Shown one piece after another: positions 16,291 to 37,400 of a stretch of DNA of 64,000 nucleotides. Position 1 is the first letter of the stretch, and every line of letters starts with the position of its first letter. The stretch is from Apteryx mantelli (taxonomy: Eukaryota > Chordata > Aves > Apterygiformes > Apterygidae): positions 4,040,001-4,104,000 of the forward strand of contig NW_027118693.1 of the NCBI RefSeq assembly GCF_036417845.1, read 5' to 3'. The notes beneath the pieces are model-generated. The model saw only the letters and a program-made list of their open reading frames with translations, searched no databases and was not told where the DNA came from. The translations under genes were made by a program, and so were the position numbers.

Positions 16291-18857
16291 CAGGAAGCTT
16301 TGGCCCTGTGGTGGCTCTGGGATCCCTGTTGAAGCGTTTCCCTGAGGTGCTGCTGCCAGCGCAGCCCCAGGTGCTGCTCGGAGCTGCGTTTGGGAGGTGC
16401 TGGGCAAAGTGTGAGCAGGCTGCTGGTGTCCTCACAAGGGGCCCTTCCCAATGGTGTCTTCTGTTGTGAAAACTGCATTTCCGAGTGTCTCTGAGAGAGG
16501 CTGTGCCCGCATGTCATGCCGTGCCTTAGCCGTTGTTTTTGCTCCCTGCCTCTTGCTTTGTGCCGAGACCTGTGAGCCTGGCAGCAGGGTGAAGGGTGTT
16601 TGCAGAAGAGCTGTGTAAGTGTGAGCTGTTTTGCTTGTCAGGGGCCCTGAAAGTTGATGAACGGCCAGTGCTTGCACTTGCTGTTGTTCTTTCCATGCTC
16701 CTAGGTCAGGGTGAAGAGTTGCTGAATTGTGTCTCTGCTGGTTTCACCAACTGAGATGCCCTGGCCTGAGTCCTTCCACGTGTCTCCAATTGTCAGGGCC
16801 TAAAATAGGAGAATGCTTGTTGTCGTGGATGTGTAGAGGATTTTCTGGTTTTGTTCAGCACTGGGGAAGGAAGCAGAGTTCTGAGTTGCGGGAAGGCTTC
16901 TCCCTGTGCCTGGGACATGAGGCCCTGCTGTCTTCAGTTTCATGATCGCTGTTCCCATGCAATCCTCCCATTAGAAAATGTTGCCAAGAATTACTTGCAG
17001 GCTGTTCTGCAATTCTTAAATTTCATAGGCTAGGTGTTGATAATGCGTAGCAGAAGCTAATCTTTTGGTGTAGTAACTGGTAGGCAATGGGTGTTTCAGA
17101 GCATTGTGAGTATTATGAGGCCATGATGTGAATCTGTGATGTGATGACACTTCTATGTGAGCAGCTGACAGGTGAGGAGAAGACGCATGGCTTGGATGCT
17201 GGTGGTGAGGTCACTTCTGGGTTTGTTGCGTGTGCTCAGAGGAGGGATTGACCCCTGCAGAGCTCTACAGCAATACAGAAGTGCAACTCATTAATCAAGC
17301 AGAAGTGGATGTTCCACATCATCTGACACAAATTTTATTCCACTCTGTCATCATGAGTTAGTACTGCTACATTTCAAATGCAGATGATGTTCTGTGGTGA
17401 GCATGGCCATGGAGTTTGCCTTTCCACTTGTTGCTAAGTAGAAGCTTGCAGCGTCCTTGCAGTCAGCTAGGGAGTGCAGCTAGACTTTTGAGGCTGCTAA
17501 ATGAATGTAGTGCTGGTGTAAATGAATGTAGTGCTGGTGTGAGCAGTGGTGTTAGTAATCTCTTCTTGCCAAGGTGAGTGCGCTTTAGAAATTGCCCCTG
17601 TCAAAAGAGGAGGGAGCGTGTGAGATTTTCCTACAAGGTCTGAATGCTGTGTCTGTCTTTGAGGTGTCCAGCTGCTGTGGTGACACGTTTGGAACTGTAA
17701 CACTTGAGGGGTCTCTGATTTTCTGTCCACGTATGCAGTCATTGGAGAATGGGTGCAAAGGCAGTTGGAGGAGACAGAAGGAATGTCACCCCCCAGAAAG
17801 GGTATGGGCCACATTTTGAAAGAGATTTCTTGTTCAGAGAAGTTGAGGCACAAGCGAGAGGCAAGAGCTGGCCTGATGAGCCACTGTGAGAGCACTTGAT
17901 CTCTGCTTCCTGGAGGTGGGAAGTGAGCAGGCCCTTGGCTGTGAGTGGCTGTTCAGAGGCAGAGCCTGTTGCAAGGCCTTGGAGGCCTAGAAAGGAATGG
18001 AAGGTCTGGAGAGTTGGGCTTGGTGTGTTGTGGGGTGCTTGGGGTGCCCTGCGTGCTGCCATGTGTGGTGCTGTGGGCTGTGTGTCGCTGATGCAGAGGC
18101 GTGTGTTGGTTGCCAACCCTCTGTGAGGTGTGGAGGTAACGGCGTGTCACAGTGCGAGATGCCCTGTGGTGGAGCCGGGTGGTGGCCCCAGTGTTTTGCT
18201 GCTCAGCGTGGGAGGAGGTGTCTGGAGAGAGCAGTGCTTTGCTCCCAAGGCCCAGCCTGCCGTCACAGTGTCCTTCTGGGAGAGCTGGGTGAGGACTGTT
18301 GGTGACCGTGTTCCCTCCTTGGAGCATCGTGGTGCGAGGCAGGGCTGCTCACGGTTTGGTGGTTTGTGTCAGCTGAGGTTCAGGCTTGCGGTTTCGGAAG
18401 GGTTTGATGCTTCCGTGAGTCTTTGGGATTTTAGTGACTGCTGGTGAGAGTTCTCTTCTCCCTCCTTAAAGGCTTTCTGTTGAATCTGGACCCTCATTGC
18501 ATCTTCCCATCTCAGACGCTAATCCATTGCAGTCCCTCAGTGAGATGGGTAGTTAATGAAAGCAGTGAGAGGCATTTCTGCACGTTGTGCCTACGCAGAG
18601 CCTTGCAGAGAGGGGAGATGCCCCCTCACAAGAAGTCAGGCCTGTGAGGGCGATGGGTGGCTCTGAGACACCTGTCCTTGTTCAGCGGTGGAGGCGGCAT
18701 CTCCAAAGCCTCTGGTGCCTTTGGCAAGAGTCTCACAATAGCAGATTCCTTGAGGCTGCAATGGGGGAGCCATGTGGAGGTAGCAGGTCTCCAACGCCCT
18801 GCTCCAGGCAGGTGCCAGTAGAGGAGGTATCTTGGGGCCTTTTCCGGTGAAGTTTTG
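16291..18857. other. No gene recognised; GT-rich towards the right
   Basis: Could be the first intron of a gene driven by island B. From about 17100 the + strand is G/T-rich. I could not align it to the 65-bp satellite. Confidence 0.35.
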
Positions 18858-19225
18858 ATTCTCTCCAAGGATGGAGATCTGGGAACCTCTCTGGATCTGT
18901 GTGTCGCAGTTTGGCCACCGTCACGGAGAAAAAGGTTTCTTCTTAACATCTGAGAAGCATTTCCCATTGTCCAGTTTGTCCCTGTTGCCTCTCATGCTAT
19001 TAGTGTGCACCTCCAAGAAAATCCGTCTCCGTCTTCTCTGTGCCCTCCATGAGGTAGCTGTGCACAGCATGAAGATCTCTGTTGGCCTTCTCTTGTCTAG
19101 GCTGAACAAAGCCAGCTCTCGCAGCCTCTCCTTTTATGCCCCACGCTGCAGCCCCTGACCATCTTGGTGTCCCTGTGCTGGACTCCCTGCAGTGTGTTAG
19201 TGCCTGTGCAGAACTGGAGAGCCCA
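18858..19225 (-). mobile_element. CR1 LINE fragment, old, 3' part of the reverse transcriptase
   Basis: On the minus strand the text follows the end of CR1 ORF2, with Arg-rich RRRRR, GNRDKL and related blocks in the usual order. On the + strand the familiar sequence GCATTTCCCATTGTCCAG...CTGTTGCCTCTC is readable. It is more diverged than the CR1 copies at 56-60 kb. Confidence 0.7.
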
Positions 19226-20955
19226 AATGGGACCTGGTATATGGACATGGTGTCACCTGTGCCAAAAAGAGGGGTAGAATGTCTTGGTGGCCCTGCTGGC
19301 TGTGCTGTCACCGATAGAGCTCAGCACAGAAGGGAGACATTTGCCCCTGCCTGTTGCAACTCTGTAAGGCCAGCAGAACTGCCAGTAACACTCCAATTCC
19401 TTCTTTCTTTCTAGGTTGCTCCACTCATGAGGTTCCCAGTGCAGTGCTAGAGGCGCTGAGGATGGAGGCAGGATGCCAGGCTGTGTCGCTGTACCTGTCA
19501 ACATCTTGGCCAGCATCGTGAGCCCTCTGTGAAAGCAGCTGCAAGTGACTGAGAAGAGGCTACATGTGGATGCGAAGGCTTCCATAAATGCGCCTGTCTT
19601 CCCTGGGTGACTTGGGGTGTGGGTTCACCTCCTGGTACCTCTGCTGTGCTGCAAATTCCACATCCCACAACTGCTGTTACTGCCAGCGCGCTCAGGAAAT
19701 GCTATTGTGCCCCCTCCTTTTCCTAGGAGGTTGTGGTGCCACACAGGATGAGTCCAAGAGCCTTATAATAGATGCCAGCATGTCTTGAGTGCCTTTGTGT
19801 GAGTGCCCCAAAGCGTCCGTAGCTTGACCTGAGGAAGTCTCAGAGCTCTTGGGCTGCTGGCTCTGTGAGGGTTGAGGATGAGCCCAAGGCCAGGTTGCCC
19901 ATGGCACCCAGCCCTCCGTGCTCTGTGAAGCCAGCTGTGGAGCGCGGACTGCTGCTGCAGAGACTGCGCAGCCAGGAGAGCTGTCATTTCAGCAGCCATC
20001 CAGTGTGGGGCTGTCTCATTGCTTGGGCCTCATGTCAAAGGCTCTGCACCCTTTTTCCCTTCCCTGGGGCTCCTTGTGCAAGTAACTAAGGAAAGGAACG
20101 GAGGTTACTGTGGGCTCAGGAGGACTTCCGGACTCTCAACTGTTTCTGTGTTGTATCTGTAACTTTTATATTACTAAAGAAAATCGCCATGCCCCCATCC
20201 CTAGCTGGAGATTCCTGAGGGGATGGAGTGGAAAGCAGCAGCCTGCTGTGCCCAAAGCAAGCAGGATCCTTCCCTCTGAAAAGAGCAGCATCACCCAAGG
20301 AGGCAGCTCTGTGCCTGATCTTGTGCTGCTCATTTGCAGAGGCCTTGTGAGCCTAGAGTGCCTTGGCCACCTTGTGGTGTAACTGCAAGAGCTTCCCTGA
20401 GTGTCTGGGTTGCGGGGCCAAGGGAAGGCAGCGAGCAGAGCAGTGGCTGTGGAGTGTGCAAGTGGCGAGTGTCCTGCATGCATCTGTTCTTGCTGGCACT
20501 TGGTTGTGTCTAGCAGAAGAGGCAGCTGTGTGGGGCAGAGGCAGTGTGTTTGTAGAGTAGGTGTCAGAGCAGAGGTCTGGCGTCAGGTTGATGCCTGGTG
20601 CAGTGCTGATCTGATCTGAGAGTGTCAGAAAGCCTTTGGAGTGCAGCTGCTGCCTCAGCTGATCTCTGTCCCGAGAAATGCACTGGAAATGGAAGTGGCA
20701 TGCTGCTGTCATTGTGCAGGTGCTGCAGTGCAAAGGCTCCCAGCTGGGACTTGATGGTACTAAAGGAAAAGCAAGACCAATCGTTCCCTTTTGTGATTTG
20801 TTGCCAGGGTGGCAGAGTGGAGCTGTCGCGTGATCTGGAGAGAGTCTTGCCAGGAGATGAAAGCCATTTGCAGAAGACTGTTCTGTGTGGAGTGATCACA
20901 GCGTAATCAAAGGACGTGAGAGTGGCCCAGGTGAGCTTCTCCTCTGTGAAGGTTT
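19226..20955. other. No gene recognised
   Basis: Flank between an old CR1 and the satellite array. No domain seen. Confidence 0.4.
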
Positions 20956-20959
20956 GCAC

Positions 20960-21560
20960 TTTTCAGCTCCCTTGTGACTCAGTCCCAGATAGGGCAGCAG
21001 CAGGCAGGTCGATGCCATTTGTGCTTGTGAGGTGTGTTGTGCGTCTGAAGCTGGTAGGCCAACAGCATGCATGTAGCTTTGGTGATGCTGGTGAGGTCTC
21101 TTGTGTCTGCATGCCTCATAAAGGGGGAGCAGGCCCATTGCTGCTGTTGGTGCTTTTGTGGTCAGTTGTGCATCAGTATGTGATTGGTGATCAGCATGGA
21201 CATTGCTGCTGTTTGTGCTTTTGTGGTCAGTTGTGCATCGGTATGTGATTGGCGATCAGCATGCACATTGCTGCTGTTGGTGCTTTTGTGGTCAGTTGTG
21301 CATCGGTATGTGATTGGCGATCAGCATGCACATTGCTGCTGTTTGTGCTTGTTGAGGTCAATTGTGCCTTAGTCGCAAAGAGGCCAGGAGCAGATATCTG
21401 GCTTCATGGCTGCCTGTGAGGTCACTTGAGCCTGAGGACCTGACATTCCAGCTTGCTGCATATTGCTGCTGCTTGTGTTTGTGGAGTCATTCAGCCTCAG
21501 TATCTGCTAAGCCACTAGGAGCCACATTGCTCCTTTTTTGTATTTGTGAGGTCACTTCTG
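20960..21560 (+). repeat. Left edge of the 65-bp satellite, diverged copies
   Basis: The same 65-bp period is present with a different sequence flavour. Two adjacent copies starting near 21228 and 21293 match each other almost perfectly (CATCGGTATGTGATTGGCGA, then CAGCATGCACATTGCTGC) yet differ widely from the main array. Outer copies from about 20960 are more degraded. Diverged, unhomogenised monomers are normal at satellite borders. Confidence 0.75.
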
Positions 21561-24500
21561 TTGAGTGCCTGATAGGCCAGTGCTGGTGATGTGGGTGTAG
21601 TTTGTGGCTGTGATGTCCCTTGTGGCTGAGTGCCTGATAGGCCAGTGCTGGTGCTGTGGGTGCAGTTTGTGTTTGTGATGTCACTTGTGGCTCAGTGCCT
21701 GATAGGCCAGTGCTGGTAATGTTGGTGCAGTTTGTGGTTGTGATGTCACTTGTGGCTGAGTGCCTGAGAGGCCAGTGCTGGTGCTGTGGGTGGAGTTTGT
21801 GGTTGTGATGTCACTTGTGGCTGAGTGCCTGATAGGCCAGTGCTGGTGCTGTGGGTGGAGTTTGTGTTTGTGATGTCACTTGTGGCTGAGTGCCTGATAG
21901 GCCAGTGCTGGTGCTGTGGGTGGAGTTTGTGTTTGTGATGTCACTTGTGGCTGAGTGCCTGATAAGCCAGTGCTGGTGCTGTGGGTGGAGTTTGTGGTTG
22001 TGATGTCACTTGTGTCTCAGTGCCTGATAGGCCAGTGCTGGTGCTGTGGGTGGAGTTTGTGTTTGTGATGTCGCTTGTGGCTGAGTGCCTGAGAGGCCAG
22101 TGCTGGTGCTGTGGGTGGAGTTTGTGGTTGTGATGTCGCTTGTGGCTGAATGCCTGATAGGCTCGTGCTGGTCACATGTGTGCTGTTTGTTTTTCTGATG
22201 TGACTTGTTGCTCAGTGCCTGATAGGCCAGTGCTGGTCACGTGAGTTCAGTTTGTGGTTGTGAGGTCACTTGTGTCTCAGTGCCTGATAGGGCAGTTCTG
22301 GTCCATCTGACTGCAGTTTGTGGTTATGATGTCACCTGTGGCTGAGTGCCTGATAGGCCAGTGCTGGTGCTGTGGGTGGGGTTTGTGTTTGTGATGTCAC
22401 TTGTGTCTCAGTGCCTGATAGGCCAGTGCTGGTGCTGTGGGTGCAGTTTGTGATTGTGAGGTCAGTTGTGGCTCAGTGCCTGATAGGCCAGTGCTGGTGC
22501 TGTGGGTGCAGTTTGTGGTTGTGATGTCACTTGTGGCTGAGTGCCTGATAGGCCAGTGCTGGTCACATGGGTCGAGTTTGTGGTTGTGATGTCACTTGTG
22601 GCTCAGTGCCTGATAGGCCAGTGCTGGTGCTGTGGGTGCAGTTTATGGTTGTGATGTCACTTGTGGCTGAGTGCGTGATAAGCCAGTGCTGGTCCTGTGG
22701 GTGGGGTTTGTGGTTGTGATGTCACTTGTGTCTCAGTGCCTGATAGGCCAGTGCTGGTCCTGTGGGTTCAGTTTGTGTTGTGATGTCGCTTGTGGCTGAG
22801 TGCCTGATAGGCCAGTGCTGGTAATGTGGGTGCAGTTTGTGATTGTGATGTCCCTTGTGTCTCAGTGCCTGATAGGCCAGTGCTGGTGATGTGGGTGGAG
22901 TTTGTGTTTCTGATGTCCCTTGTGGCTCAGTGCCTGATAGGCCAGTGCTGGTGATGTGGGTGCAGTTTGTGGTTGTGATGTCACTTGTGGCTGAGTGCCT
23001 GATAGGCCAGTGCTGGTAATGTGGGTGCAGTTTGTGATTGTGATGTCCCTTGTGTCTCAGTGCCTGATAGGCCAGTGCTGGTGATGTGGGTGGAGTTTGT
23101 GTTTCTGATGTCCCTTGTGGCTCAGTGCCTGATAGGCCAGTGCTGGTGATGTGGGTGCAGTTTGTGGCTGTGAGGTCACTTGTGGCTGAGTGCCTGATAG
23201 GCCAGTGCTGGTGCTGTGGGTGCAGTTTGTGTTTGTGATGTCGCTTGTGGCTGAGTGCCTGATAGGCCAGTGCTGGTGATGTGGGTACAGTTTGTGGTTG
23301 TGAGGTGACTTGTGGCTCAGTGCCTGATAGGCCAGTGCTGGTCCTGTGGGTGGGGTTTGTGGCTGTGAGGTCACTTGTGGCTGTGTGCCTGATAGGCCAG
23401 TGCTGGTGCTGTGGGTGCAGTTTGTGGTTGTGATGTCACTTGTGGCTCAGTGCCTGATAGGCCAGTGCTGGTGGTGTGGCTGCAGTTTGTGTTTGTGATG
23501 TCACTTGTGGCTGAGTGCCTGATAGGCCAGTGCTGGGGATTTCGCTGCAGTTTGTGGTTGTGATGTCACTTGTGGCTCACTGCCTGATAGGCCAGTGCTG
23601 GTCACACGTCTGTAGTTTGTGGTTGTGAGGTCACTTGTGGCTCACTGCCTGATAGGCCAGTGCTGGTCACACGTCTGTAGTTTGTGGTTGTGAGGTCACT
23701 TGTGGCTCAGTGCCTGATAGGCCAGTGCTGGTGGTGTGGCTGCAGTTTGTGGTTGTGATGTCACTTGTGGCTCAGTTCCTGATAGGCCAGTGCTGGTCAC
23801 ATGGCTGCAGTTTGTTTGTGATGTCACTTGTGGCTCAGTGCCTGATAGGCCAGTGCTGGTGCTGTGGGTGCAGTTTGTGGTTGTGAGGTCACTTGTGGCT
23901 CAGTGCCTGATAGGCCAGTGCTGGTCTCATGGCTGTAGTTTGTGGTTGTGATGTCCCTTGTGGCTGAGTGCCTGATAGGCCAGTGCTGGTGCTGTGGGTG
24001 GAGTTTGTGTTTGTGATGTCACTTGTGGCTGAGTGCCTGATAGGCCAGTGCTGGTGCTGTGGGTGCATTTTGTGGTTGTGAGGTCACTTGTGTCTCAGTA
24101 CCTGATAGGCCAGTGCTGGTGCTGTGGGTGCAGTTTGTGTTTGTGATGTCACTTGTGTCTGAGTGCCTGATAGGCCCGTTCTGGTCACATGTGTGCATTT
24201 TTTGTTTGTGATGTCACTTGTGGCTCAGTGCCTGATAGGCTAGTGTTGGTGATGTGGGTGCAGTTTGTGTTTGTGATGTCACTTGTGGCTCAGTGCCTGA
24301 TAGGCCAGTGCTGGTGCTGTGGGTGCAGTTTGTGGTTGTGAGGTCACTTGTGGCTCAGTGCCTGATAGGCTAGTGTTGGTCCTTTGGGGGGAGTTTGTGG
24401 TTGTGATGTCACTTGTGTCTCACTGCCTGATAGGCCAGTGCTGGTACTGTGGGTGCAGTTTTTGTTTGTGATGTCGCTTGTGGCTCAGTGCCTGATAGGC

Positions 24501-27500
24501 CAGTGCTGGTCCTGTGGGTGCAGTTTGTGGTTGTGAGGTCACTTGTGGCTCAGTGCCTGATAGGGCAGTGCTGGTCTCATGGCTGTAGTTTGTGGTTGTG
24601 ATGTCACTTGTGGCTCAGTGCCTGATAGGGTAGTTCTGGTCCATCTGACTGCAGTTTGTGTTTGTGATGTCACTTGTGGCTCAGTGCCTGATAGGCTAGT
24701 GTTGGTCCTTTGGGGGGAGTTTGTGGTTGTGATGTCTCTTGTGGCTCAGTGCCTGATAGGCCAGTGCTGGTGCTGTGGGTGGGGTTTGTGTTTGTGATGT
24801 CACTTGTGGCTCAGTGCCTGATAGGCCAGTGCTGGTGCTGTGGGTGCAGTTTGTGGTTGTGGTGTCACTTGTGGCTCAGTGCCTGATAGGCCAGTGCTGG
24901 TGCTGTGGGTGCAGTTTGTGTTTGTGATGTCACTTGTGGCTCAGTGCCTGATAGGCCAGTGCTGGTGCTGTGGGTGCAGTTTGTGTTTGTGATGTCACTT
25001 GTGGCTCAGTGCCTGATAGGGCAGTGCTGGTCTCATGGCTGTAGTTTGTGGTTGTGATGTCACTTGTGGCTCAGTGCCTGATAGGGCAGTTCTGGTCCAT
25101 CTGACTGCAGTTTGTGTTTGTGATGTCACTTGTGGCTCAGTGCCTGATAGGCCAGTGCTGGTGCTGTGGGTGCAGTTTGTGTTTGTGATGTCACTTGTGG
25201 CTCAGTGCCTGATAGGCCAGTGCTGGTGCTGTGGGTGCAGTTTGTGTTTGTGATGTCACTTGTGTCTCAGTGCCTGATAGGCCAGTGCTGGTGCTGTGGG
25301 TGCAGTTTGTGGTTGTGGTGTCACTTGTGGCTCAGTGCCTGATAGGCCAGTGCTTGTCCTGTGGCTGCAGTTTGTGATTGTGAGGTCAGTTGTGGCTCAG
25401 TGCCTGATAGGCCAGTGCTGGTGCTGTGGGTGCAGTTTGTGGTTGTGATGTCACTTGTGGCTGAGTGCCTGATAGGCCAGTGCTTGTCCTGTGGCTGCAG
25501 TTTGTGGTTGTGAGGTCACTTGTGTCTCAGTGCCTGATAGGCCAGTGCTGGTGCTGTGGGTGCAGTTTGTGGTTGTGATGTCACTTGTGGCTCAGTGCCT
25601 GATAGGGCAGTTCTGGTCCATATTACTGCAGTTTGTGGTTGTGATGTCACTTGTGGCTGAGTGCCTGATAGGCCAGTGCTGGTGCTGTGGGTGGAGTTTG
25701 TGTTTGTGATGTCACTTGTGGCTGAGTGCCTGATAGGCCAGTGCTGGTGCTGTGGGTGGGGTTTGTGGTTGTGATGTCCCTTGTGGCAGAGTGCCTGATA
25801 GGCCAGTGCTGGTGCTGTGGGTGGGGTTTGTGGTTGTGATGTCACTTGTGTCTCAGTGCCTGATAGGCCAGCGCTGGTGCTGTGGGTGGGGTTTGTGGTT
25901 GTGATGTCCCTTGTGGCTGAGTGCGTGATAAGCCAGTGCTGGTCCTGTGGGTGGGGTTTGTGGTTGTGATGTCCCTTGTGGCAGAGTGCCTGATAGGCCA
26001 GTGCTGGTGCTGTGGGTGGAGTTTGTGGTTGTGATGTCACTTGTGGCTGAGTGCCTGATAGGCCAGTGCTGGTGCTGTGGGTGCAGTTTGTGTTTGTGAT
26101 GTCACTTGTGGCTCAATGCCTGATAGGCCAGTGCTGGTGCTGTGGGTGGGGTTTGTGGTTGTGATGTCACTTGTGGCTGAGTGCCTGATAGGCCAGTGCT
26201 GGTAATGTGGGTGCAGTTTGTGTTTGTGATGTCACTTGTGGCTCAGTGCCTGATAGGCCAGTGCTGGTGGTGCGGCTGCAGTTTGTGTTTGTGAGGTCAC
26301 TTGTGGCTGAGTGCCTGATAGGCCAATGCTGGTGCTGTGGGTGCAGTTTGTGGTTGTGAGGTCACTTGTGGCTCAGTGCCTGATAGGCCAGTGCTGGTCT
26401 CATGGCTGTAGTTTGTGGTTGTGATGTCCCTTGTGGCTGAGTGCCTGATAGGCCAGTGCTGGTGCTGTGGGTGGAGTTTGTGTTTGTGATGTCACTTGTG
26501 GCTGAGTGCCTGATAGGCCAGTGCTGGTGCTGTGGGTGCATTTTGTGGTTGTGAGGTCACTTGTGTCTCAGTACCTGATAGGCCAGTGCTGGTGCTGTGG
26601 GTGCAGTTTGTGTTTGTGATGTCACTTGTGTCTGAGTGCCTGATAGGCCCGTTCTGGTCACATGTGTGCATTTTTTGTTTGTGATGTCACTTGTGGCTCA
26701 GTGCCTGATAGGCTAGTGTTGGTGATGTGGGTGCAGTTTGTGTTTGTGATGTCACTTGTGGCTGAGTGCCTGATAGGCCAGTGCTGGTGCTGTGGGTGCA
26801 GTTTGTGGTTGTGAGGTCACTTGTGGCTCAGTGCCTGATAGGCTAGTGTTGGTCCTTTGGGGGGAGTTTGTGCTTGTGATGTCACTTGTGTCTCACTGCC
26901 TGATAGGCCAGTGCTGGTACTGTGGGTGCAGTTTTTGTTTGTGATGTCGCTTGTGGCTCAGTGCCTGATAGGCCAGTGCTGGTCCTGTGGGTGCAGTTTG
27001 TGGTTGTGAGGTCACTTGTGGCTCAGTGCCTGATAGGGCAGTGCTGGTCTCATGGCTGTAGTTTGTGGTTGTGATGTCACTTGTGGCTCAGTGCCTGATA
27101 GGGTAGTTCTGGTCCATCTGACTGCAGTTTGTGTTTGTGATGTCACTTGTGGCTCAGTGCCTGATAGGCTAGTGTTGGTCCTTTGGGGGGAGTTTGTGGT
27201 TGTGATGTCTCTTGTGGCTCAGTGCCTGATAGGCCAGTGCTGGTGCTGTGGGTGGGGTTTGTGTTTGTGATGTCACTTGTGGCTCAGTGCCTGATAGGCC
27301 AGTGCTGGTGCTGTGGGTGCAGTTTGTGGTTGTGGTGTCACTTGTGGCTCAGTGCCTGATAGGCCAGTGCTGGTGCTGTGGGTGCAGTTTGTGTTTGTGA
27401 TGTCACTTGTGGCTCAGTGCCTGATAGGCCAGTGCTGGTGCTGTGGGTGCAGTTTGTGGTTGTGAGGTCACTTGTGGCTCAGTGCCTGATAGGCTAGTGT

Positions 27501-30500
27501 TGGTCCTTTGGGGGGAGTTTGTGGTTGTGATGTCACTTGTGTCTCACTGCCTGATCGGCCAGTGCTGGTGCTGTGGGTGCAGTTTGTGTTTGTGATGTCG
27601 CTTGTGGCTCAGTGCCTGATAGGCCAGTGCTGGTCACATGTCTGTAGTTTGTGTTTGTGATGTCACTTGTGGCTGAGTGCCTGATAGGCCAGTGCTGGTT
27701 CTGTGGGTGCAGTTTTTGTTTGTGATGTCCCTTGTGGCTCAATGCCTGATAGGCCAGTGCTGGTGCTGTGGGTGCAGTTTGTGGTTGTGATGTCCCTTGT
27801 GTCTCAGTGCCTGATAGGCCAGTGCTGGTCACATGTCTGTAGTTTGTGGTTGTGAGGTCACTTGTGGCTCAGTGCCTGCTAGGCCAGTGCTGGTGCTGTG
27901 GGTGCAGTTTGTGGTTGTGATGTCACTTGTGGCTGAGTGCCAGCTAGGCCAGTGCTGGTGCTGTGGGTGCAGTTTGTGGTTGTGAGGTCACTTGTGGCTC
28001 AGTTCCTGATAGGGCAGTGCTGGTCTCATGGCTGTAGTTTGTGGTTGTGATGTCACTTGTGGCTCAGTGCCTGATAGGGCAGTTCTGGTCCATCTGACTG
28101 CAGTTTGTGTTTGTGATGTCACTTGTGGCTCAGTGCCTGATAGGCCAGTGCTGGTGCTGTGGGTGCAGTTTGTGGTTGTGGTGTCACTTGTGGCTCAGTG
28201 CCTGATAGGCCAGTGCTTGTCCTGTGGCTGCAGTTTGTGATTGTGAGGTCAGTTGTGGCTCAGTGCCTGATAGGCCAGTGCTGGTGCTGTGGGTGCAGTT
28301 TGTGGTTGTGATGTCACTTGTGGCTGAGTGCCTGATAGGCCAGTGCTTGTCCTGTGGCTGCAGTTTGTGGTTGTGAGGTCACTTGTGTCTCAGTGCCTGA
28401 TAGGCCAGTGCTGGTGCTGTGGGTGCAGTTTGTGGTTGTGATGTCACTTGTGGCTCAGTGCCTGATAGGGCAGTTCTGGTCCATATTACTGCAGTTTGTG
28501 GTTGTGATGTCACTTGTGGCTGAGTGCCTGATAGGCCAGTGCTGGTGCTGTGGGTGGAGTTTGTGTTTGTGATGTCACTTGTGGCTGAGTGCCTGATAGG
28601 CCAGTGCTGGTGCTGTGGGTGGGGTTTGTGGTTGTGATGTCCCTTGTGGCAGAGTGCCTGATAGGCCAGTGCTGGTGCTGTGGGTGGGGTTTGTGGTTGT
28701 GATGTCACTTGTGTCTCAGTGCCTGATAGGCCAGCGCTGGTGCTGTGGGTGGGGTTTGTGGTTGTGATGTCCCTTGTGGCTGAGTGCCTGATAGGCCAGT
28801 GCTGGTCCTGTCAGTGCAGTTTGTGGTTTTGAGGTCAGTTGTGCCTCAGTGCCTGATAGGCCAGTGCTGGTCACATGGGTCGAGTTTGTGGTTGTGAGGT
28901 CACTTGTGGCTCAGTGCCTGATAGGCCAGTGCTGGTGCTGTGGGTGCAGTTTATGGTTGTGATGTCACTTGTGGCTGAGTGCGTGATAAGCCAGTGCTGG
29001 TCCTGTGGGTGGGGTTTGTGGTTGTGATGTCCCTTGTGGCAGAGTGCCTGATAGGCCAGTGCTGGTGCTGTGGGTGGAGTTTGTGGTTGTGATGTCACTT
29101 GTGGCTGAGTGCCTGATAGGCCAGTGCTGGTGCTGTGGGTGCAGTTTGTGTTTGTGATGTCACTTGTGGCTCAATGCCTGATAGGCCAGTGCTGGTGCTG
29201 TGGGTGCAGTTTGTGGTTGTGATGTCACTTGTGGCTGAGTGCCTGATAGGCCAGTGCTGGTAATGTGGGTGCAGTTTGTGTTTGTGATGTCACTTGTGGC
29301 TCAGTGCCTGATAGGCCAGTGCTGGTGGTGCGGCTGCAGTTTGTGTTTGTGAGGTCACTTGTGGCTGAGTGCCTGATAGGCCAATGCTGGTGCTGTGGGT
29401 GCAGTTTGTGGTTGTGAGGTCACTTGTGGCTCAGTGCCTGATAGGCCAGTGCTGGTCTCATGGCTGTAGTTTGTGGTTGTGATGTCCCTTGTGGCTGAGT
29501 GCCTGATAGGCCAGTGCTGGTGCTGTGGGTGGAGTTTGTGTTTGTGATGTCACTTGTGGCTGAGTGCCTGATAGGCCAGTGCTGGTGCTGTGGGTGCATT
29601 TTGTGGTTGTGAGGTCACTTGTGGCTCAGTGCCTGATAGGCCAGTGCTGGTGCTGTGGGTGCAGTTTGTGTTTGTGATGTCACTTGTGGCTCAATGCCTG
29701 ATAGGCCAGTGCTGGTGCTGTGGGTGCAGTTTGTGGTTGTGATGTCACTTGTGGCTGAGTGCCTGATAGGCCAGTGCTGGTAATGTGGGTGCAGTTTGTG
29801 TTTGTGATGTCACTTGTGGCTCAGTGCCTGATAGGCCAGTGCTGGTGGTGCGGCTGCAGTTTGTGTTTGTGAGGTCACTTGTGGCTGAGTGCCTGATAGG
29901 CCAATGCTGGTGCTGTGGGTGCAGTTTGTGGTTGTGAGGTCACTTGTGGCTGAGTGCCTGGTAGGCTAGTGTTGGTCCTTTGGGGGGAGTTTGTGGTTGT
30001 GATGTCACTTGTGTCTCACTGCCTGATAGGCCAGTGCTGGTGCTGTGGGTGGGGTTTGTGGTTGTGATGTCACTTGTGGCTCAGTGCCTGATAGGCCAGT
30101 GCTGGTGCTGTGGGTGCAGTTTGTGTTTGTGATGTCACTTGTGGCTGAGTGCCTGATAGGCCAGTGCTGGTGCTGTGGCTGCAGTTTGTGATTGTGAGGT
30201 CACTTGTGGGTCAGTGCCTGATAGGCCAGCGCTGGTGATTTGTGTGCAGTTTGTGTTTGTGATGTCACTTGTGTCTGAGTGCCTGATAGGCCCGTTCTGG
30301 TCACATGTGTGCATTTTTTGTTTGTGATGTCACTTGTGGCTCAATGCCTGATAGGCTAGTGTTGGTGATGTGGGTGCAGTTTTTGTTTGTGATGTCACTT
30401 GTGTCTCACTGCCTGATAGGCCAGTGCTGGTGCTGTGGCTGCAGTTTGTGATTGTGATGTCCCTTGTGTCTCAGTGCCTGATAGGCCAGTGCTGGTGCTG

Positions 30501-32585
30501 TGGGTGCAGTTTGTGGCTGTGAGGTCACTTGTGGCTGAGTGCCTGATAGGCCAGTGCTGGTGCTGTGGGTGCAGTTTGTGTTTGTGATGTCGCTTGTGGC
30601 TGAGTGCCTGATAGGCCAGTGCTGGTGATGTGGGTACAGTTTGTGGTTGTGAGGTGACTTCTGGCTCAGTGCCTGATAGGCCAGTGCTGGTCCTGTGGGT
30701 GGGGTTTGTGTTTGTGATGTCACTTGTGGCTGTGTGCCTGATAGGCCAGTGCTGGTGCTGTGGGTGCAGTTTGTGGTTGTGATGTCACTTGTGGCTCAGT
30801 GCCTGATAGGCCAGTGCTGGTCCTGTGGGTGCAGTTTGTGGTTGTGATGTCACTTGTGGCTCAGTGCCTGATAGGGCAGTGCTGGTCTCATGGCTGTAGT
30901 TTGTGGTTGTGATGTCACTTGTGGCTCAGTGCCTGATAGGCTAGTGTTGGTCCTTTGGGGGGAGTTTGTGGTTGTGATGTCACTTGTGGCTCAGTGCCTG
31001 ATAGGCCAGTGCTGGTGCTGTGGGTGGGGTTTGTGTTTGTGATGTCACTTGTGGCTCAGTGCCTGATAGGCCAGTGCTGGTGCTGTGGGTGCAGTTTGTG
31101 GTTGTGGTGTCACTTGTGGCTCAGTGCCTGATAGGCCAGTGCTGGTTCTGTGGGTGCAGTTTGTGTTTGTGATGTCACTTGTGGCTCAGTGCCTGATAGG
31201 CCAGTGCTTGTCCTGTGGGTGCAGTTTGTGGTTGTGATGTCCCTTGTGGCTCAGTGCCTGATAGGCCAGTGCTGGTCACATGTCTGTAGTTTGTGGTTGT
31301 GATGTCACTTGTCGCTGAGTGCCTGATAGGCCAGTGCTGGTGCTGTGGGTGCAGTTTTTGTTTGTGATGTCCCTTGTGGCTGAGTGCCTGATAGGCCAGT
31401 GCTGGTGCTGTGGGTGCAGTTTGTGTTTGTGATGTCACTTGTGGCTGAGTGCCTGATAGGCCAGTGCTGGTGCTGTGGGTGCATTTTGTGGTTGTGAGGT
31501 CACTTGTGTCTCAGTATCTGATAGGCCAGTGCTGGTGCTGTGGCTGGAGTTTGTGTTTGTGATGTCCCTTGTGGCTGAGTGCCTGATAGGCCAGTGCTGG
31601 TGCTGTGGGTGCAGTTTGTGGTTGTGATGTCACTTGTGGCTCAGTTCCTGAAGGCCAGTGCTGGTTCTGTGGGTGCAGTTTGTGTTTGTGATGTCGCTTG
31701 TGGCTCAGTGCCTGATAGGCCAGTGCTGGTGCTGTGGGTGCAGTTTGTGGTTGTGAGGTCACTTGTTTCTCAGTTCCTGATAGGCCAGTGCTGGTGCTGT
31801 GGGTGCAGTTTGTGGCTGTGAGGTCACTTGTGGCTGAGTGCCTGATAGGCCAGTGCTGGTGCTGTGGGTGCAGTTTGTGGTTGTGAGGTCACTTGTGTCT
31901 CAGTGCCTGATAGGCCAGTGCTGGTGATTTGGGTGCAGTTTGTGGTTGTGATGTCCCTTGTGGCTCAGTGCCTGATAGGCCAGTGCTGGTGCTGTGGGTG
32001 GGGTTTGTGGTTGTGATGTCCCTTGTGGCAGAGTGCCTGATAGGCCAGTGCTGGTGCTGTGGGTGGAGTTTGTGTTTGTGATGTCACTTGTGGCTGAGTG
32101 CCTGATAGGCTCGTGCTGGTCACCTGTGTGCTGTTTGTTTTTCTGATGTGACTTGTTGCTCAGTGCCTGATAGGCCAGTGTTAGACACGTGTCTGTAGTT
32201 TGTGGTTGTGAGGTCACTTGTGGCTCAGTGCCTGATAGGCCAGTGCTGGTGCTGTGGGTGCAGTTTGTGTTTGTGATGTCCCTTGTGGCTGAGTGCCTGA
32301 TTGGCCAGTGCTGGTGCTGTGGGTGCAGTTTGTGTTTGTGATGTCCCTTGTGGCTGAGTGCCTGATTGGCCAGTGCTGGTGCTGTGGGTGCGATTTTTGG
32401 TTGTGATGTCACTTGTGGCTCAGTGCCTCATAGGCCCGTGCTGGTCACATGGCTGCAGTTTGTGGTTGTGATGTTACTTGTGGCTCAGTGCCTGACAGGC
32501 CAGTGCTGGTTCTGTGGGTGCAGTTTGTGGTTCTGATGTCACTTGTGGCTCAGTGCCTGATAGGCCAGTTCTGGGCACATTGTTG
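21561..32585 (+). repeat. 65-bp satellite array, about 170 canonical copies
   Basis: Head-to-tail copies in one orientation. An example monomer is 24946-25010, measured from one GCCTGATAGG to the next. Constant blocks are GTGATGTCAC (or GTGAGGTCAC), TTGTGGCTCAGTGCCTGATA and CCAGTGCTGG. Most variation is in a roughly 13-bp cassette after CCAGTGCTGGT, with variants such as GCTGTGGGTGCAG, CTCATGGCTGTAG, CCATCTGACTGCAG and CCTTTGGGGGGAG. The + strand is rich in G and T and poor in A. I do not recognise it as one of the known chicken satellites (for example the 41-bp family), but I cannot search. The chance open frames inside it are not genes. Confidence 0.97.
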
Positions 32586-32815
32586 CTTGATTTACCTGTC
32601 AGTTACTTCTTCCTCAGCACCACATAGTCTCACAGTATGTTCATGTCTCCTCTTTGTCTATTTGAGGTCTTTGTGCCCCTGTACCTTATAGGCTAGCAGG
32701 AAGCACATGGTTTCCATGCGGATGTGAGTTCACTTTTGTCTCCGCATCTGATTGGCCCATAGCAGGCAGAAGGTTTTACAGCTTCGTTGGAAATCCCGTT
32801 TTCTCAGTACCTGCC
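32586..32815 (+). repeat. Right edge of the satellite, diverged copies
   Basis: Degenerate monomers continue with the same spacing. Landmarks are CCTTATAGGCTAGCAGG, GCATCTGATTGGCCCATAGC and TTCTCAGTACCTGCCTGA, the last ending where the retroviral LTR remnant begins. Confidence 0.7.
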
Positions 32816-32932
32816 TGAGAGCACAAGAAGGATCTTATTGCCAGCAATAATACTTAAAAACTTAGAAATACGACTCCTGCTGCTCATTACCAGTACCCAA
32901 GAGCAAACAAAACAGAACAGATTATTTTATCT
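32816..32932 (+). repeat. 5' LTR remnant (3' end only)
   Basis: Aligns with the last part of the 3' LTR: TCTTATTGCCAGCAATAA here and CCTTATTGCTAGCAGTAA there, then a shared GACTCCTGCTGCTCATTACC. U3 is absent, replaced by satellite. Confidence 0.8.
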
Positions 32933-32935
32933 GTT

Positions 32936-32953
32936 TGGCACCCCAGACAGAAT
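32936..32953 (+). other. Candidate primer-binding site
   Basis: TGGCACCCCAGACAGAAT directly after the LTR end, beginning with the expected TGG. I cannot assign the tRNA with confidence. Confidence 0.45.
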
Positions 32954-33297
32954 ACAGCGAGGTTCCCATCTGGTGAGCACTGGCACTGGTCTTGCATGCC
33001 TATGTTTATCTGCCGCAAGCTCCCGGAGATCTACTTCAATGGGCACAGCAAATGCCCTGGGTGTGGGAGGACCCAGAGAAGGCAGCTCGACCTTTTTCTG
33101 CAATAGTAAAGGGACATCCCATTTGTTAGGGGGATGTTCAAGTATTGTTACAACAGATATTTTAGCCAGGGGATAGAGAACGGATATTGGGAAAAGGATA
33201 GGCAATTGGCAGACTGAGATAGAAACCGACAACCTTGACGAGTAGATCCGAATTGGGATTATAATAATACAAATGATTGGGCAGCATGTGAAATGGC

Positions 33298-33719
33298 ATG
33301 CCAAAATCTGGTTTTAGCTATAAGAACTGCCGGGCAAATGGGTGTTATCTCAGAAAAGGTACTAGCGTTAGCAAAAGTCTGAGGAACACTCAATTTTTGA
33401 AACAGTCTGCTTGCGGCAAACTATGCTCTTATGCTATGGAGGGATGTCTGTGGAAAATGTTAATGAAAAGCTGGCAGTGAGCGTATTGGTCCAGCAAGCA
33501 GCACCAGCTATCCATGAGTATTTCAGAAAACATGCTCCCGGGTGGCGGGGAGAGAATTTACAGACGATACTATCGTTATCAACTTTCATATACGATGGAA
33601 GATCAGCAAAAGAAAGGAAGGAGAAGGAAAGGCGAAAGCGGGAGGAAGTGAGTATGTTGGCAGCAGTGCTGGGAGGAATTCCAAAGATGAAAGGAAAGGG
33701 AATAAATGTGAGTGGATGA
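33298..33719 (+). pseudogene. gag: gag-like remnant (capsid/nucleocapsid boundary)
   Basis: The readable part from 33411 has a QQAAPAIHEYF block followed by a highly charged AKERKEKERRKREE run and MLAAVLGG. A charged helix near the end of capsid is typical of gammaretroviral Gag, which forms the particle shell. The upstream frame (33298-33410) is shifted and has stops. The matrix region is absent and the zinc knuckle is not seen. The remnant ends only about 60 bp before reverse-transcriptase sequence, so an internal deletion has removed the gag-pol junction and protease. Confidence 0.5.
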
Positions 33720-33779
33720 GGTCAAAGAGGAAGAGGGACCAGAAGAGCAGGAATGGGTGTAAAACAGCACCCGCCTTTC

Positions 33780-34622
33780 CTGGGAGGCTGAACAGGGATT
33801 TGAGCCTGTGATTGCTGATTTGATTAAGAATGGAATTATAGTACAATGTACTTCCCCTTGTAATACCCCTGTATTGCCTGTGAAGAAACCAAAACTGGAC
33901 CCAAATGGGGAACTGGTATACCGCTTTGTACAAGATTTGCAAGCAATTAATAAAATAGTGGATCTACCACACCCTGTGGTCCCTGATGTGATCCAAGTCC
34001 TTACGGAAATTCCCTCAGATGCAAACTGTTTTACTGTTGTGGATCTAACGGCAGCTTTCTTTACTATACCAGTCCATGAAGAGTCACAGTTCCTCTTTGC
34101 CTTTACTTGGAAAGCACAGCAGTGTGCATGGACCAGACTGCCACAAGGATTCATGGATTCTTCCACACTGTTTTCGAGAATATTGAAAAGAGATTTACAA
34201 ATGATTATGCTGTCAAAAACCATCCCTAAACTGATACAATATATAGATGACTTGTTGATTGCGAGTACTGATTGTGATGTTTGTTAGCCAGATAGTAAAA
34301 CATTGTTGTGTGCCCCAGCAGAAAAGGTACATAAAGTCTCCCTTGCCAAAAGGCAGTTGTGCCAGCAACAAGTTAATTATTTGGGAATGATAATTCGGTC
34401 AGGAGAGAGATTGATCTCATTGGAGTGAATAGAAGCAAGCCAGGAAATACTAGTCCTTCAGATGAAAAGGCAGGTTAGGGCCTTTTTAGGTGCAATAGGA
34501 TTTAATAGGTATTGGATACCCGGATTTAGTGAAAAAGCAAAGGTATTAACACAGTTAACTAAGGATAGTGAACCAGATTTAATGGTGTGGACTCCAGAGG
34601 TGGAAAAAGCATTTAAGAGTTA
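33780..34622 (+). pseudogene. pol: pol remnant: reverse transcriptase
   Basis: Reverse transcriptase copies viral RNA into DNA. Fingers and palm are readable in one frame to the stop at 34285, with VVDLTAAFFTIPV (first catalytic Asp), LPQGF and the active-site motif QYIDDLLIA, so the catalytic acidic residues are visible. After the stop the frame continues with VNYLGMIIRSG (to a stop near 34427) and AFLGAIGFNRYWIPGF (thumb/connection) to a stop at 34622. The amino-terminal part of the enzyme and the protease are missing. Stops make it non-functional. Confidence 0.85.
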
Positions 34623-34634
34623 AAGCAGGAAGTT

Positions 34635-35540
34635 ATGGAAGCTCCCGCTCTAGCTTTGCCAGACTCTGGTAAGCCCTTTGTGTTATATCTGAATGAACGA
34701 AAGGGAATCACAAGCAGTGTGCTAGCTCACAAAACTGCCCGGCGCTGGCATGCGATAGCTTATCAGTATGAGCTAGTTTTGCTCACTGAACCAAATGTAA
34801 CGTTAGAACAGTGTGATACGCTAAACCCAGCTACTCTGTTACCAGAAATACTGCAAGCTAAGGAAAAATTATTTCACAGTTGCTTGGAAACAATAGATTT
34901 GAGGCTGACTGTTCTGCCTACTGTGGAAGAAGAGCCCCTGCACAATCCGGATTTAATATTGTTCTGTGATGGATCATCATACTATGAAAAGGGTCGAAGG
35001 GTTGCTGGGTATGCAGTAACTACGCAATGTATATATAGTGCTGGAAGCGGGATCCCTTCCAGGACATTTTGGGGCTCAGGTGGTGGAATTGATAGCCTTA
35101 ACCCGAGCATGTATTATAGCCATGAGTAAGACTGCTAATATCTATATGGACTCCAAATACGCTTTGGGAGTGATATTTGCAACGGGAATAATTTGGAGAG
35201 AAAAAGGGGTTTTGACCGTGGCAGGACATCAAGTAGCCCTCCAAGATCAGATTGTAGAGTTATTAAGGGCTTTGGAAAAATCTCTGCAGTTAGCAATCCT
35301 GTATCAGAGGGCTCACCAACGAGACACTTGGATATAACTAAGGGAAATAACCTTGCTGATGCCACAGCAAAAGCAGCTGCCCTACAACCACTGCCTACCA
35401 AACTCGGGCCACGAGAAGAAATGGTAATGACTGAAACTATAGAAGAACTGGAGGAAGAACACCAAGCAACACCTAAGGAAGAGGTAGAAGGATGGAAGCG
35501 TTTGGGAGCAGAGCAAAAAAAGGGGATATGTTTTTTGTAG
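34635..35540 (+). pseudogene. pol: pol remnant: RNase H
   Basis: RNase H removes the RNA strand during reverse transcription. The catalytic motifs appear in order but across frames. LILFCDGSSYY is near 34955 in the first frame. After a frame change at about 35040-35060 come AQVVELIALTRA (Glu) and IYMDSKYALGV (Asp). A further shift near 35300 leads to GNNLADATAKAAA, the usual end of the domain. At least two frameshifts inactivate it. Confidence 0.8.
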
Positions 35541-36400
35541 GGAAAACCGTTGCTCCCTAAGATCATGTTGATAACACTAGTAAGAGAACTCCATGGACAG
35601 ATGCACGGGGGGATGTTGTATTTAGACAACGACATTTCCCACTCATGGGCAGCACCAGGTTTGACTCAAACAATTTTACAAATAACGAAAAAGTGTTTAG
35701 TATGCATGGAATACAACACTAAATCAAAGCTAGAAGCTAAAATAAAAGGAGGGCGTCGTTAGGCTTGGATGCCGTTTCAAAAATTACAAACAGACTTTGC
35801 AGACATGACCCTGAAAGAAGGACAGAAACATCTGTTAGTCATAGTTGAACAATTATCCCGTTGGGTGGAAGCATTCCCATTCAGAAAGGCTACAGCCCAA
35901 GCGGTAGTAAAAGCCTTACTGAAAGATATCATACCACACTTTGGGGTACCGGAGGAAATAGATTCTGATAAAGGAGCTCATTTTACTGCTGAAATACTAA
36001 AAGCAATATATGAAACACTGGAAATTCAGAGAAGACTACGTACACCTTATCATCCTCAATCCTCAGGGCAGGTAGAAAGGATGAATCGTATACTAAAAAT
36101 GAAGTTAGCCAAAATTTGCAGGGAGACTCAGTGGAAGGGGACAGAAGCATTGCCATTAGCGTTACGGGAATTAAGGCGATGCCTGGGCCCAAGCCATGGG
36201 TTGACCCCTTTGAAATTTTGTTTGGCAGACCAGGTAGGATGCCAGGAACTTTTGTGCCAGCACATACCTGCCTTTTGGCAGGAGATGAAGCTGTTACCCA
36301 ATACGTTATGTGTCTGCAGAATAGTTTCAAGAATAAGAGATATACAGCTGTAATTACCCAACCTCTGCCTTTAGGAGATTACCTCCATCCATACTGACTG
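35541..36400 (+). pseudogene. pol: pol remnant: integrase
   Basis: Integrase joins viral DNA to the host chromosome. The zinc-binding HHCC end is represented by ELHGQMHGG and CLVC (35580-35715), then a stop at 35760. The core from 35769 keeps all three DDE acids: Asp in LQTDFAD, Asp in DSDKGAHF and Glu in SSGQVERMNR. The carboxy-terminal part is shifted near 36200 and runs out by about 36400. One stop plus frameshifts break the gene, although the catalytic core itself is well kept. Confidence 0.85.
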
Positions 36401-36699
36401 GGAGATTATGGTATTGTAAAAACTCGTAAAGCCAAAACCATTTACAACCAAACTGGGAGGGCCCTGTACAGGTGTTATTGTGCCCTTATTCTGCTCTTAA
36501 GGTTGCAGGTAAAGAAACCTGGATTCATCACTCCCAAGTAAAGGCGGCCCCCAGCACTGCGACCTCCTCAGAGGCCATTCCAGTTTCTTGAGCATCTGCT
36601 GCAGAAGAGAGAATACCTGTGCAACAGCAGGAAAACCTCTTCAAGGAAAACTGTATAGATTTGTCACACTCTGTGATTATTTTGTGCTATGTGTTTAAA

Positions 36700-37359
36700 T
36701 GTGATTTCTGGGTCATTTCTGTCTTTTATAGCTATTACAAGTTTAACCCTAGGCTGGGAAAATAATCACACTGAACAATTTATGACTAAGGTCTCACAAG
36801 TAGGGAATGTGTCAGAATGTTGGTACTGCCTATAGCAGCCTCAATCCCTGGACACCAATTTTGGTTGTCTAGCAAAGCCTGTTTCTGCTTTGGGCTGCTA
36901 TCAGTCCAGTTTGACATATTTACACCCTAGGGTGCCAGATTTTTGGCAGCAACCCTTTAAGGCACATTCCTATGATAAAGCTCCATAGCATGTCAACATG
37001 CCTTAAAAAATCTACAAATAGGAAGTGAGCTCTCTCTCTCAATTAGCCATCCAAAATCGATGGGCTTTAGTTTACCTGTTGGCCACATTTGTTTTTATGC
37101 AAACAAATCAAAACAAACTGAATATGATGTAAATGTCATTCAACGACATGTTCGTACCTTCCATCGAATAGCCAAAGAGCAGTCCCTGTCCAATAGCCTA
37201 GCAGCAGAGTGGTCGTGGTTGTGGTCATGGCTACCAGATCTGGGAGGGTGGACCAGATGTGTTTTAATAATTTTAATGTTAATTCTGGCAGTAGGAACTG
37301 TGCTTTTCTGTTGTATCTCATGCATGGGTCAAATACGCCTCTCATGTGTAAGGGGATAA
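36700..37359 (+). pseudogene. env: env remnant, internally deleted
   Basis: The beginning resembles a surface subunit (cysteine-bearing NVSECWYC near 36815, glycosylation sites NHT and NVS, an in-frame stop shortly after). The end is a transmembrane subunit tail from about 37060, with WLPDLGGW followed by a hydrophobic ILMLILAVGTVLFCC membrane anchor. Most of the surface subunit and the fusion region are missing. It cannot encode an envelope. Confidence 0.7.
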
Positions 37360-37400
37360 AAGTATAGACCAGCATAACATTGGAAGCAGGCATGCATGAA

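What the first reader, a model, noticed from the sequence alone, without database searches (positions are those of the whole stretch)
20960..32815. A nearly 12-kb array of a 65-bp GT-rich satellite next to an OR cluster
About 180 head-to-tail copies with an exact 65-bp period (for example GCCTGATAGG at 24946 and 25011). I do not recognise the monomer. It combines a constant half with a roughly 13-bp variable cassette. A long single-orientation array of such short, non-microsatellite units beside receptor genes is unusual and could be a pericentromeric or subtelomeric marker, or a lineage-specific satellite.
Basis: partly seen in the sequence, partly recalled or inferred. Interest (0 to 1): 0.75.

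Follow-up and report, generated by a model that had tools for sequence, protein, structure and literature searches.

The report
Kiwi satellite DNA among smell-receptor duplications
A 65-base DNA unit repeated about 170 times in a row, in what is almost certainly the brown kiwi genome, is one small array of an abundant satellite whose 24-base core word occurs 112,843 times in that genome; it sits between duplicated smell-receptor genes and was likely spread together with them by repeated DNA duplication.

Summary
A 65-bp head-to-tail array fills 21536-32588 (170 monomers, one strand), with decayed monomers at its edges (20953-21535; 32589-32780). It is not a lone oddity. A 24-base core word has 112,843 exact matches in the 1.504-Gb genome (backwards control 0), roughly 395,000 monomers, 26 Mb, 1.7% (rough). 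On this 5.65-Mb contig a word from the decayed left edge recurs exactly 31 times (10 +, 21 -) between 2.23 and 5.56 Mb, among segmental duplications like those here that carry olfactory-receptor genes; one block is satellite at 17 of 17 places over 220 kb. The window array has a mirror partner of about 70 copies in the other arm of an inverted duplication: arm pieces are 92-99% alike, yet the two cores show no detectable correspondence. Edges are inherited and cores replaced, which fits unequal exchange inside co-amplified receptor duplications. A similar mixture was sampled near the start of a 51-Mb contig. Pericentromeric position and heterochromatin are inferred. Nearest published parallel: the OR29G-rich pericentromeric heterochromatin of chicken chromosome 29. 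A real satellite, undescribed in the library searched; new member of a known kind.

The parts
20953..21535 (+). Left edge: decayed 65-bp monomers (eight scored, 55-62% to the consensus), with a local extra run of a divergent variant at 21128-21367
   Evidence: the same edge aligns closely, by eye, at the left-arm array, at 4109 kb and in L037; a 30-base word from it occurs 37 times in the genome
21536..32588 (+). Homogenised core, 170 monomers of 65 bp
32589..32780 (+). Right edge: decayed monomers, towards the proviral stretch
23823..25020 (+). Block copied inside the array; second copy starts 26296 (offset 2473; 6 mismatches in 1198)
25236..25924 (+). Block copied inside the array; second copy starts 28099 (offset 2863; 1 mismatch in 689)
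25896..26630 (+). Block copied inside the array; second copy starts 28954 (offset 3058; 5 mismatches in 735)
29042..29431 (+). Block copied inside the array; second copy starts 29562 (offset 520; 4 mismatches in 390)
37919..38021 (-). Inverted fragment of about 1.6 monomers just beyond proviral sequence; also present at the mirrored place of the other arm (4020788-4020877)
12949..20939 (+). Right arm of the inverted duplication, inner part: 12949-17147 (96.5%), a short piece near 17195-17653 (91.7%) and 19222-20939 (95.6%) match the left arm inverted
32803..37899 (+). Right arm, proviral stretch shared with the left arm (98.5% over 5,099 bp, inverted)
   Evidence: RVT_1 and rve domains on separate frames
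38031..49455 (+). Right arm, outer part: 38031-41024 (99.0%), 41016-43622 (97.5%), 43621-45289 (95.9%), 45392-49455 (93.0%) against the left arm, inverted
4065..5075 (+). Olfactory receptor open frame, 336 aa, in the spacer between the arms
39116..39967 (-). Olfactory receptor frame, 283 aa, amino end apparently in another frame (looks broken); the other arm's copy translates identically over these 283 residues
45778..46737 (-). OR14-like olfactory receptor, 319 aa open frame

Best explanation
This is one small array of a major 65-bp satellite that lies inside segmental duplications carrying olfactory-receptor genes; it was likely copied around with those duplications, and its interior likely turns over by unequal exchange while its decayed edges are inherited. 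Shown: the array, its edges, the mirror partner in the inverted duplication, 31 exact copies of an edge word on the contig in both orientations, 112,843 exact copies of a core word in the genome, block copies inside the window array, and no detectable correspondence between the two arm cores. Inferred: that an old 65-bp minisatellite in an ancestral receptor duplication was the seed; that unequal exchange or break-induced copying of roughly 0.4-1.2 kb blocks expands and homogenises the cores; that segmental duplication, often inverted, spreads edge plus core; and that the result is pericentromeric (or subtelomeric) heterochromatin with no sequence-specific job beyond bulk. The arrays would in turn offer long homologous stretches for ectopic exchange, which would keep receptor copy number changing.
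For: Array and decayed edges. Block copies inside the array; windows of 325 bp with a copy at 96% or more elsewhere in the same stretch: 79 of 164 here, 105 of 119 in L024, 71 of 119 in L025. Inverted arms, pieces 92-99% alike, carrying about 170 and about 70 monomers. Core comparison: left-arm windows match the right-arm core at 0.922 on average, the same as their best match within their own array (0.922) and close to that in the unrelated L025 (0.917); 0 of 65 reach 0.96. The edge aligns among four places; its 30-base word occurs 31 times on C282 (10 +, 21 -) and 6 times on C271, control 0. On a 140-kb grid, 26 positions from 2.06 Mb on: 6 full satellite and 1 edge; of the 24 not already in the reference stretch, 13 match the local duplications at over 90%; 0 of 14 positions before 2.0 Mb are satellite. 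One block is satellite at 17 of 17 sampled places from 3.46 to 3.68 Mb. Genome count 112,843, backwards control 0. Small samples near the start of C6 give satellite and duplication-like sequence again.
Against: No chromatin, FISH or centromere data, so 'pericentromeric' and 'heterochromatin' are untested. Of the 24 grid positions 4 match neither satellite nor the local duplications, and one of the 14 left positions (0.66 Mb) does match the duplications. The matching grid and C6 samples (1 kb and 200 bp) were not checked for receptor genes, and dispersed elements could explain some of them. The left-arm core itself has 0 of 65 windows with a near-copy, so recent block copying is not seen in every array. 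The best left-to-right core window reaches 0.951, near the poorer flank's 95.6%, though a match to the unrelated L024 reaches 0.957, so a short surviving orthologous piece is not excluded. Only the first 100 of 112,843 places were listed, so the chromosomal distribution is largely unseen. The copy-number estimate scales from one contig, where the word is in 17-46% of monomers by sample. Gene conversion or rolling-circle reinsertion would leave similar traces.
Confidence: 0.77

Rival explanations
1. The satellite is the functional centromeric repeat: some of its arrays carry CENP-A and the receptor duplications are passengers.
For: It is the kind of abundant, block-duplicated repeat that centromeres use; one block is satellite at 17 of 17 places over 220 kb; the complex lies beside a second, single-orientation macrosatellite on the contig.
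Against: 31 edge words spread over 3.3 Mb in both orientations do not look like one centromere core; no CENP-B-box match in the window (pattern recalled); the neighbouring 36-bp macrosatellite is the more uniform single block in what was sampled.
Confidence: 0.12
2. The arrays, or their mirror arrangement, are partly assembly artefacts.
For: The 24-mer search shows very many near-identical units, which are hard to assemble; both contig starts that were looked at read N.
Against: Arm pieces differ by 1-8% and the two cores differ throughout, so they are not one sequence placed twice; array lengths differ (about 70 and 170); the edge word lies at 37 places.
Confidence: 0.04
3. A mobile element spreads short satellite pieces that then expand on the spot.
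For: A 1.6-monomer fragment sits beside proviral sequence in both arms, and the only exact match listed on the 223-Mb C1 is a run of about 3.4 monomers beside a CR1-like sequence (CR1 is recalled, not from a call).
Against: The places examined share the same decayed edge and a piece of outer flank (the 4109-kb place shares 146 bp of it), which fits duplication of a whole locus and not fresh insertions; the two-arm fragment is explained by the arm duplication itself.
Confidence: 0.05
4. The array is a conserved control element for the neighbouring receptor genes, for example an enhancer hub or insulator.
For: It lies among receptor genes and the unit holds palindrome-like words such as TGATGTCA and CCAGTGCTGG (read by eye).
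Against: The core is replaced between arms that keep their flanks; neither strand folds unusually (z -1.73 and 0.01); the same repeat forms a block whose 17 sampled places over 220 kb are all satellite.
Confidence: 0.02

Closest known systems
Chicken chromosome 29 pericentromeric heterochromatin with the OR29G amplicon (PMC9974502; passages and section 9 read)
   Same: A small chromosome in which a multi-Mb repeat-rich part holds satellite DNA mixed with a multicopy olfactory-receptor gene, beside a different part; that paper proposes satellite growth as a main cause of heterochromatin expansion.
   Different: There the OR gene is said to have 386 intact copies and the location is backed by CENP-A, H3K9me3 and FISH; here receptor copies were not counted beyond 264 kb, chromatin is unknown, and the other side of the contig is itself partly a 36-bp macrosatellite. 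Orthology of the two chromosomes was not tested.
Chicken CNM and PO41 41-bp repeats (PMC9974502 and PMC3091757; passages read)
   Same: Short-unit avian satellites on small chromosomes; PO41 also occurs in both orientations and separates the two MHC complexes on chromosome 16.
   Different: Unit 41 bp, PO41 63% G+C; here 65 bp and about 54% G+C. Sequences were not compared directly.
Emu satellites, 24 DnoSat families (PMC11036779; passages read)
   Same: Palaeognath satellite catalogue, families preferentially on microchromosomes.
   Different: Described there as predominantly over 100 bp; the passages seen do not survey kiwi, and the one family checked in Apteryx rowi formed no array. Sequences were not compared with this monomer.
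Satellite birth inside duplicated loci with unequal exchange (general concept, recalled)
   Same: Decayed edges, homogenised core, block duplications.
   Different: Here the edge word recurs in dozens of copies on one contig, so edge inheritance and core replacement can be read in one chromosome.

Membership tests
Satellite DNA | Head-to-tail tandem units, homogenised within arrays | tested here: met
Satellite DNA | High abundance, long arrays | tested here: met
   112,843 exact 24-mers; satellite at 17 of 17 places over 220 kb, with an edge word at 3,713,702 suggesting over 250 kb
Satellite DNA | Located in heterochromatin | not testable with these tools
   no chromatin data
Chicken CNM / PO41 repeats | 41-bp unit | tested here: not met
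   period 65
Chicken CNM / PO41 repeats | Sequence identity to CNM or PO41 | not tested
   no sequences of these repeats were at hand
OR29G-type receptor amplicon heterochromatin | Olfactory receptor genes in segmental duplications together with satellite | tested here: met
   directly in the 264 kb; over megabases only through satellite, edge and duplication-like samples, not opened for receptor genes
OR29G-type receptor amplicon heterochromatin | Hundreds of intact copies of one receptor gene | tested here: inconclusive
   14 receptor-like stretches at about 12 places, of several kinds, in 264 kb; P0011, P0014, P0017 and P0074 at 83-93% are listed on a contig of the same length; no full count
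OR29G-type receptor amplicon heterochromatin | CENP-A / H3K9me3 evidence of pericentromeric state | not testable with these tools
   no ChIP data
Emu DnoSat families | Sequence match | not tested
   no DnoSat sequences available
Functional centromeric satellite | CENP-B box in the unit | tested here: not met
   0 matches in the window (pattern recalled); not required in birds as far as recalled
Functional centromeric satellite | CENP-A occupancy | not testable with these tools
   no data

The most novel reading that the evidence does not exclude
The 65-bp satellite and the OR14 receptor duplications form one co-amplifying system: the arrays act as recombination substrates that drive repeated, often inverted, duplication and movement of receptor genes between chromosomes, so that the kiwi's receptor expansion was powered by its satellite.
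Probability: 0.2. Interest if true: 0.72.

Novelty: new member of a known kind. Interest (0 to 1): 0.5.

Why it matters
A satellite that may make up nearly 2% of a kiwi genome appears undescribed in the open-access library searched, and it is woven into olfactory-receptor duplications in a bird that relies on smell. A short-read survey put the kiwi repertoire at up to 141 receptor genes while an earlier PCR estimate was 478 with a 95% interval of 156-1,708 (both in PMC4511969, passages); multi-Mb receptor-satellite complexes that short reads collapse are a testable reason for such disagreement. Dozens of places that share an edge word, with cores that differ in the pair compared, also give a natural experiment for measuring satellite turnover against known flank divergence.

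Tried and rejected
DNA-mode genome search with the monomer returned nothing; it skips very common words and missed the window itself, so it was not used as evidence. A first test for shared monomer runs between arms (three or more with at most one mismatch) found none but is weak at 4% divergence; it was replaced by the 325-bp window test. A section of the script meant to list block copies printed nothing; one search did it directly, for seven offsets, and found copies at four (195, 7024 and 130 gave none). The 24-mer has no match in viral contigs. The idea that the left third of the contig is gene-rich euchromatin, as in chicken, was dropped for 1.34-1.92 Mb when it proved to be a macrosatellite. 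Strand folding and the CENP-B box gave nothing. A mismatch-tolerant edge search, to enumerate other chromosomes, did not complete. Two of the 40 grid positions (4020001 and 4160001) lie in the reference stretch and match themselves; they are left out of the 24. Monomers not exactly 65 bp were left out of the identity tables. The printed output was cut in the middle.
Full report
Observation. TRF finds period 65, 169.8 copies at 21537-32574. Consensus segmentation gives 179 monomers starting between 20953 and 32715; 166 are counted as 65 bp, three of these by default at gaps or the end. The core (168 monomers, 21601-32459) averages 92.6% to the consensus; the eight scored left-edge monomers have 55-62%. 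Plus-strand background matches do not exceed 32 of 65 beyond 40 kb. The unit is GT-rich (72%) with strong strand asymmetry. Position entropy is 0.80 bits for 53-65 and 0.22 for 1-52, with further variable positions at 7, 18 and 28.

Organism and place. The tool places the window at C282:4040001-4104000 of a 1,504,198,195-base, 408-contig assembly; C282 is 5,649,509 bp. I take the genome to be brown kiwi; this is an inference from contig length.

Neighbourhood. Fetching 100 kb on each side showed more copies of the repeat: a minus-strand array of about 70 monomers within 4026.0-4031.3 kb, a plus-strand one of 15 at 4109.7-4110.6 kb, decayed-only places at 3973.7, 4005.7, 4033.5 and 4196.8 kb, and an isolated fragment at 4020.8 kb. 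Self-comparison with the repeat masked showed that the window array and the 70-copy array lie at mirrored places of an inverted duplication, 4008940-4038416 against 4052949-4089455, in pieces 91.7 to 99.0% alike; a 33.7-kb direct duplication at 99.5% (3940001-3973699 against 4163100-4196818) lies nearby. Fourteen receptor-like stretches of several kinds, at about 12 places, lie in the 264 kb.

Edges are inherited, cores are not. The decayed left edge aligns among the window array, its mirror partner, the 4109-kb array and L037; the 4109-kb place shares only about 146 bp of outer flank with the arms. The cores of the two arms do not correspond: for 65 windows of 325 bp in the left-arm core, the best match in the right-arm core averages 0.922, equal to the best match within the left-arm array itself and close to that in L025 (0.917); none reaches 0.96, the maximum is 0.951, and the unrelated L024 reaches 0.957. 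The adjoining arm pieces are 95.6% alike on one side and 98.5% on the other. Block copies within the window array have offsets of 520, 2473, 2863 and 3058 bp and 1-6 mismatches. Windows with a copy at 96% or more in the same stretch: 79 of 164 in the window core, 105 of 119 in L024, 71 of 119 in L025, but 0 of 65 in the left-arm core.

The whole contig. A 140-kb grid of 1-kb samples (40 positions) gave 0 of 14 satellite positions before 2.0 Mb (5 of these 14 are the 36-bp macrosatellite and 1, at 0.66 Mb, matches the local duplications) and 6 full plus 1 edge of 26 from 2.06 Mb on, mean 24.8% of sampled bases (bootstrap 9.7-41.6%); of the 24 of these not already in the reference stretch, 13 match the local duplications above 90% and 4 match neither. 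These samples were not opened for receptor genes. From 3.46 to 3.68 Mb, 17 of 17 sampled places are minus-strand satellite, the samples at 3.445 and 3.74 Mb are not, and an edge word on the minus strand lies at 3,713,702, so this block is probably over 250 kb. The edge word occurs 37 times in the genome, 31 on C282 (10 +, 21 -) and 6 on C271, backwards control 0. Of the 31, I saw the core directly beyond the edge in four (window, left arm, 4109 kb, L023), and satellite on the expected side within 13 kb in two more (L025 and L046); the others were not opened except as said above for 3,713,702 and for L037, where the sample ends at the edge.

The genome. The 24-base core word has 50,622 forward and 62,221 reverse exact matches, backwards control 0 and 0. 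It is present in 187 of about 654 monomers examined on C282 (28.6%; 17-46% by sample), which scales to about 395,000 monomers or 25.6 Mb, 1.7% of the assembly; the sample range alone gives roughly 16 to 43 Mb. Only the first 100 places were listed: one on C1 (222.9 Mb), then C6 near its start; if the list is in contig order, C2 to C5 have none. Twelve small samples at the start of C6 (51.1 Mb) gave N at the very end, satellite at 50, 110, 250 and 1,000 kb (the 50-kb one with the same kind of decayed edge, three bases different in the 30-base word), sequence 93-100% like the C282 stretch at 200, 300, 400 and 600 kb over 200 bp each, a weak 77% match at 160 kb and nothing at 80 and 1,500 kb. So satellite and duplication-like sequence occur together on at least two contigs, though 200-bp matches could include dispersed elements.

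Mechanism. Inherited decayed edges, replaced cores, block copies and mixed orientation are what unequal exchange inside segmentally duplicated loci would leave. That the complex is pericentromeric is inferred from its bulk, its mixture of repeats and a neighbouring single-orientation macrosatellite of 36-bp subunits on C282 (units about 1.77-1.92 kb; 370 forward and 13 reverse exact words in the genome, on C282 starting at 1,339,786). It could equally be subtelomeric: C6's copy is at a contig start.

What is known. Chicken chromosome 29 has the nearest arrangement: a multicopy receptor OR29G (386 intact copies) in pericentromeric heterochromatin that fills 66.6% of the chromosome (PMC9974502, section 9; passages). 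PO41 and CNM are 41-bp repeats (PMC3091757, passages). The emu catalogue (PMC11036779, passages) concerns emu, rhea and tinamou. Kiwi receptor counts are from PMC4511969 (passages). Five words of 12-15 bases from the monomer are in 0 papers of the library, and the other searches (listings only) showed no description of a kiwi satellite; supplements and Dfam/Repbase were not searched.

Verdict.

Noticed in passing
G000:C282:1339786 to at least 1921000 (L051, L032, L067, L052, L068, L033, L069, L053): Single-orientation GC-rich (64%) macrosatellite, unit about 1.77-1.92 kb built of 36/28-bp subunits, samples 89-100% alike; a 28-base word has 370 forward and 13 reverse matches in the genome. Candidate centromeric block.
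   Followed up: partly
L066 (C282:5620001-5621000) and L022 (C282:5646510-5649509): C-rich 41-bp (21 x 2) and 58-bp repeats at the contig's right end, reminiscent of PO41 by unit length only.
   Followed up: no
C282:3940001-3973699 and 4163100-4196818: 33.7-kb direct duplication at 99.5% identity, 223 kb apart.
   Followed up: partly
window 33763-37359: Endogenous retrovirus with reverse transcriptase and integrase domains in separate broken frames, shared by both arms at 98.5%; described only.
   Followed up: partly
window 37919-38021 and C282:4020788-4020877: Inverted 1.6-monomer fragment just beyond the proviral stretch in both arms; how an undecayed fragment came to face the array is unexplained.
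   Followed up: partly
L102 (C1:115815801-115816200): The only exact core-word match listed on the 223-Mb C1: about 3.4 monomers beside a CR1-like sequence (CR1 recalled, not from a call).
   Followed up: partly
window 12448-12736: 35-bp G-rich minisatellite, about 7 copies, unrelated to the 65-bp unit.
   Followed up: no
window 56050-60302: Three related stretches 77-81% alike with open frames resembling CR1 LINE (recalled; the one frame scanned, 58988-59776, has no Pfam match).
   Followed up: no
C282:3973.7-3974.6 kb, 4005.7-4006.4 kb, 4196.8-4197.7 kb: Decayed monomers arranged minus then plus (head-to-head) without a homogeneous core: possible relics of the ancestral seed.
   Followed up: partly
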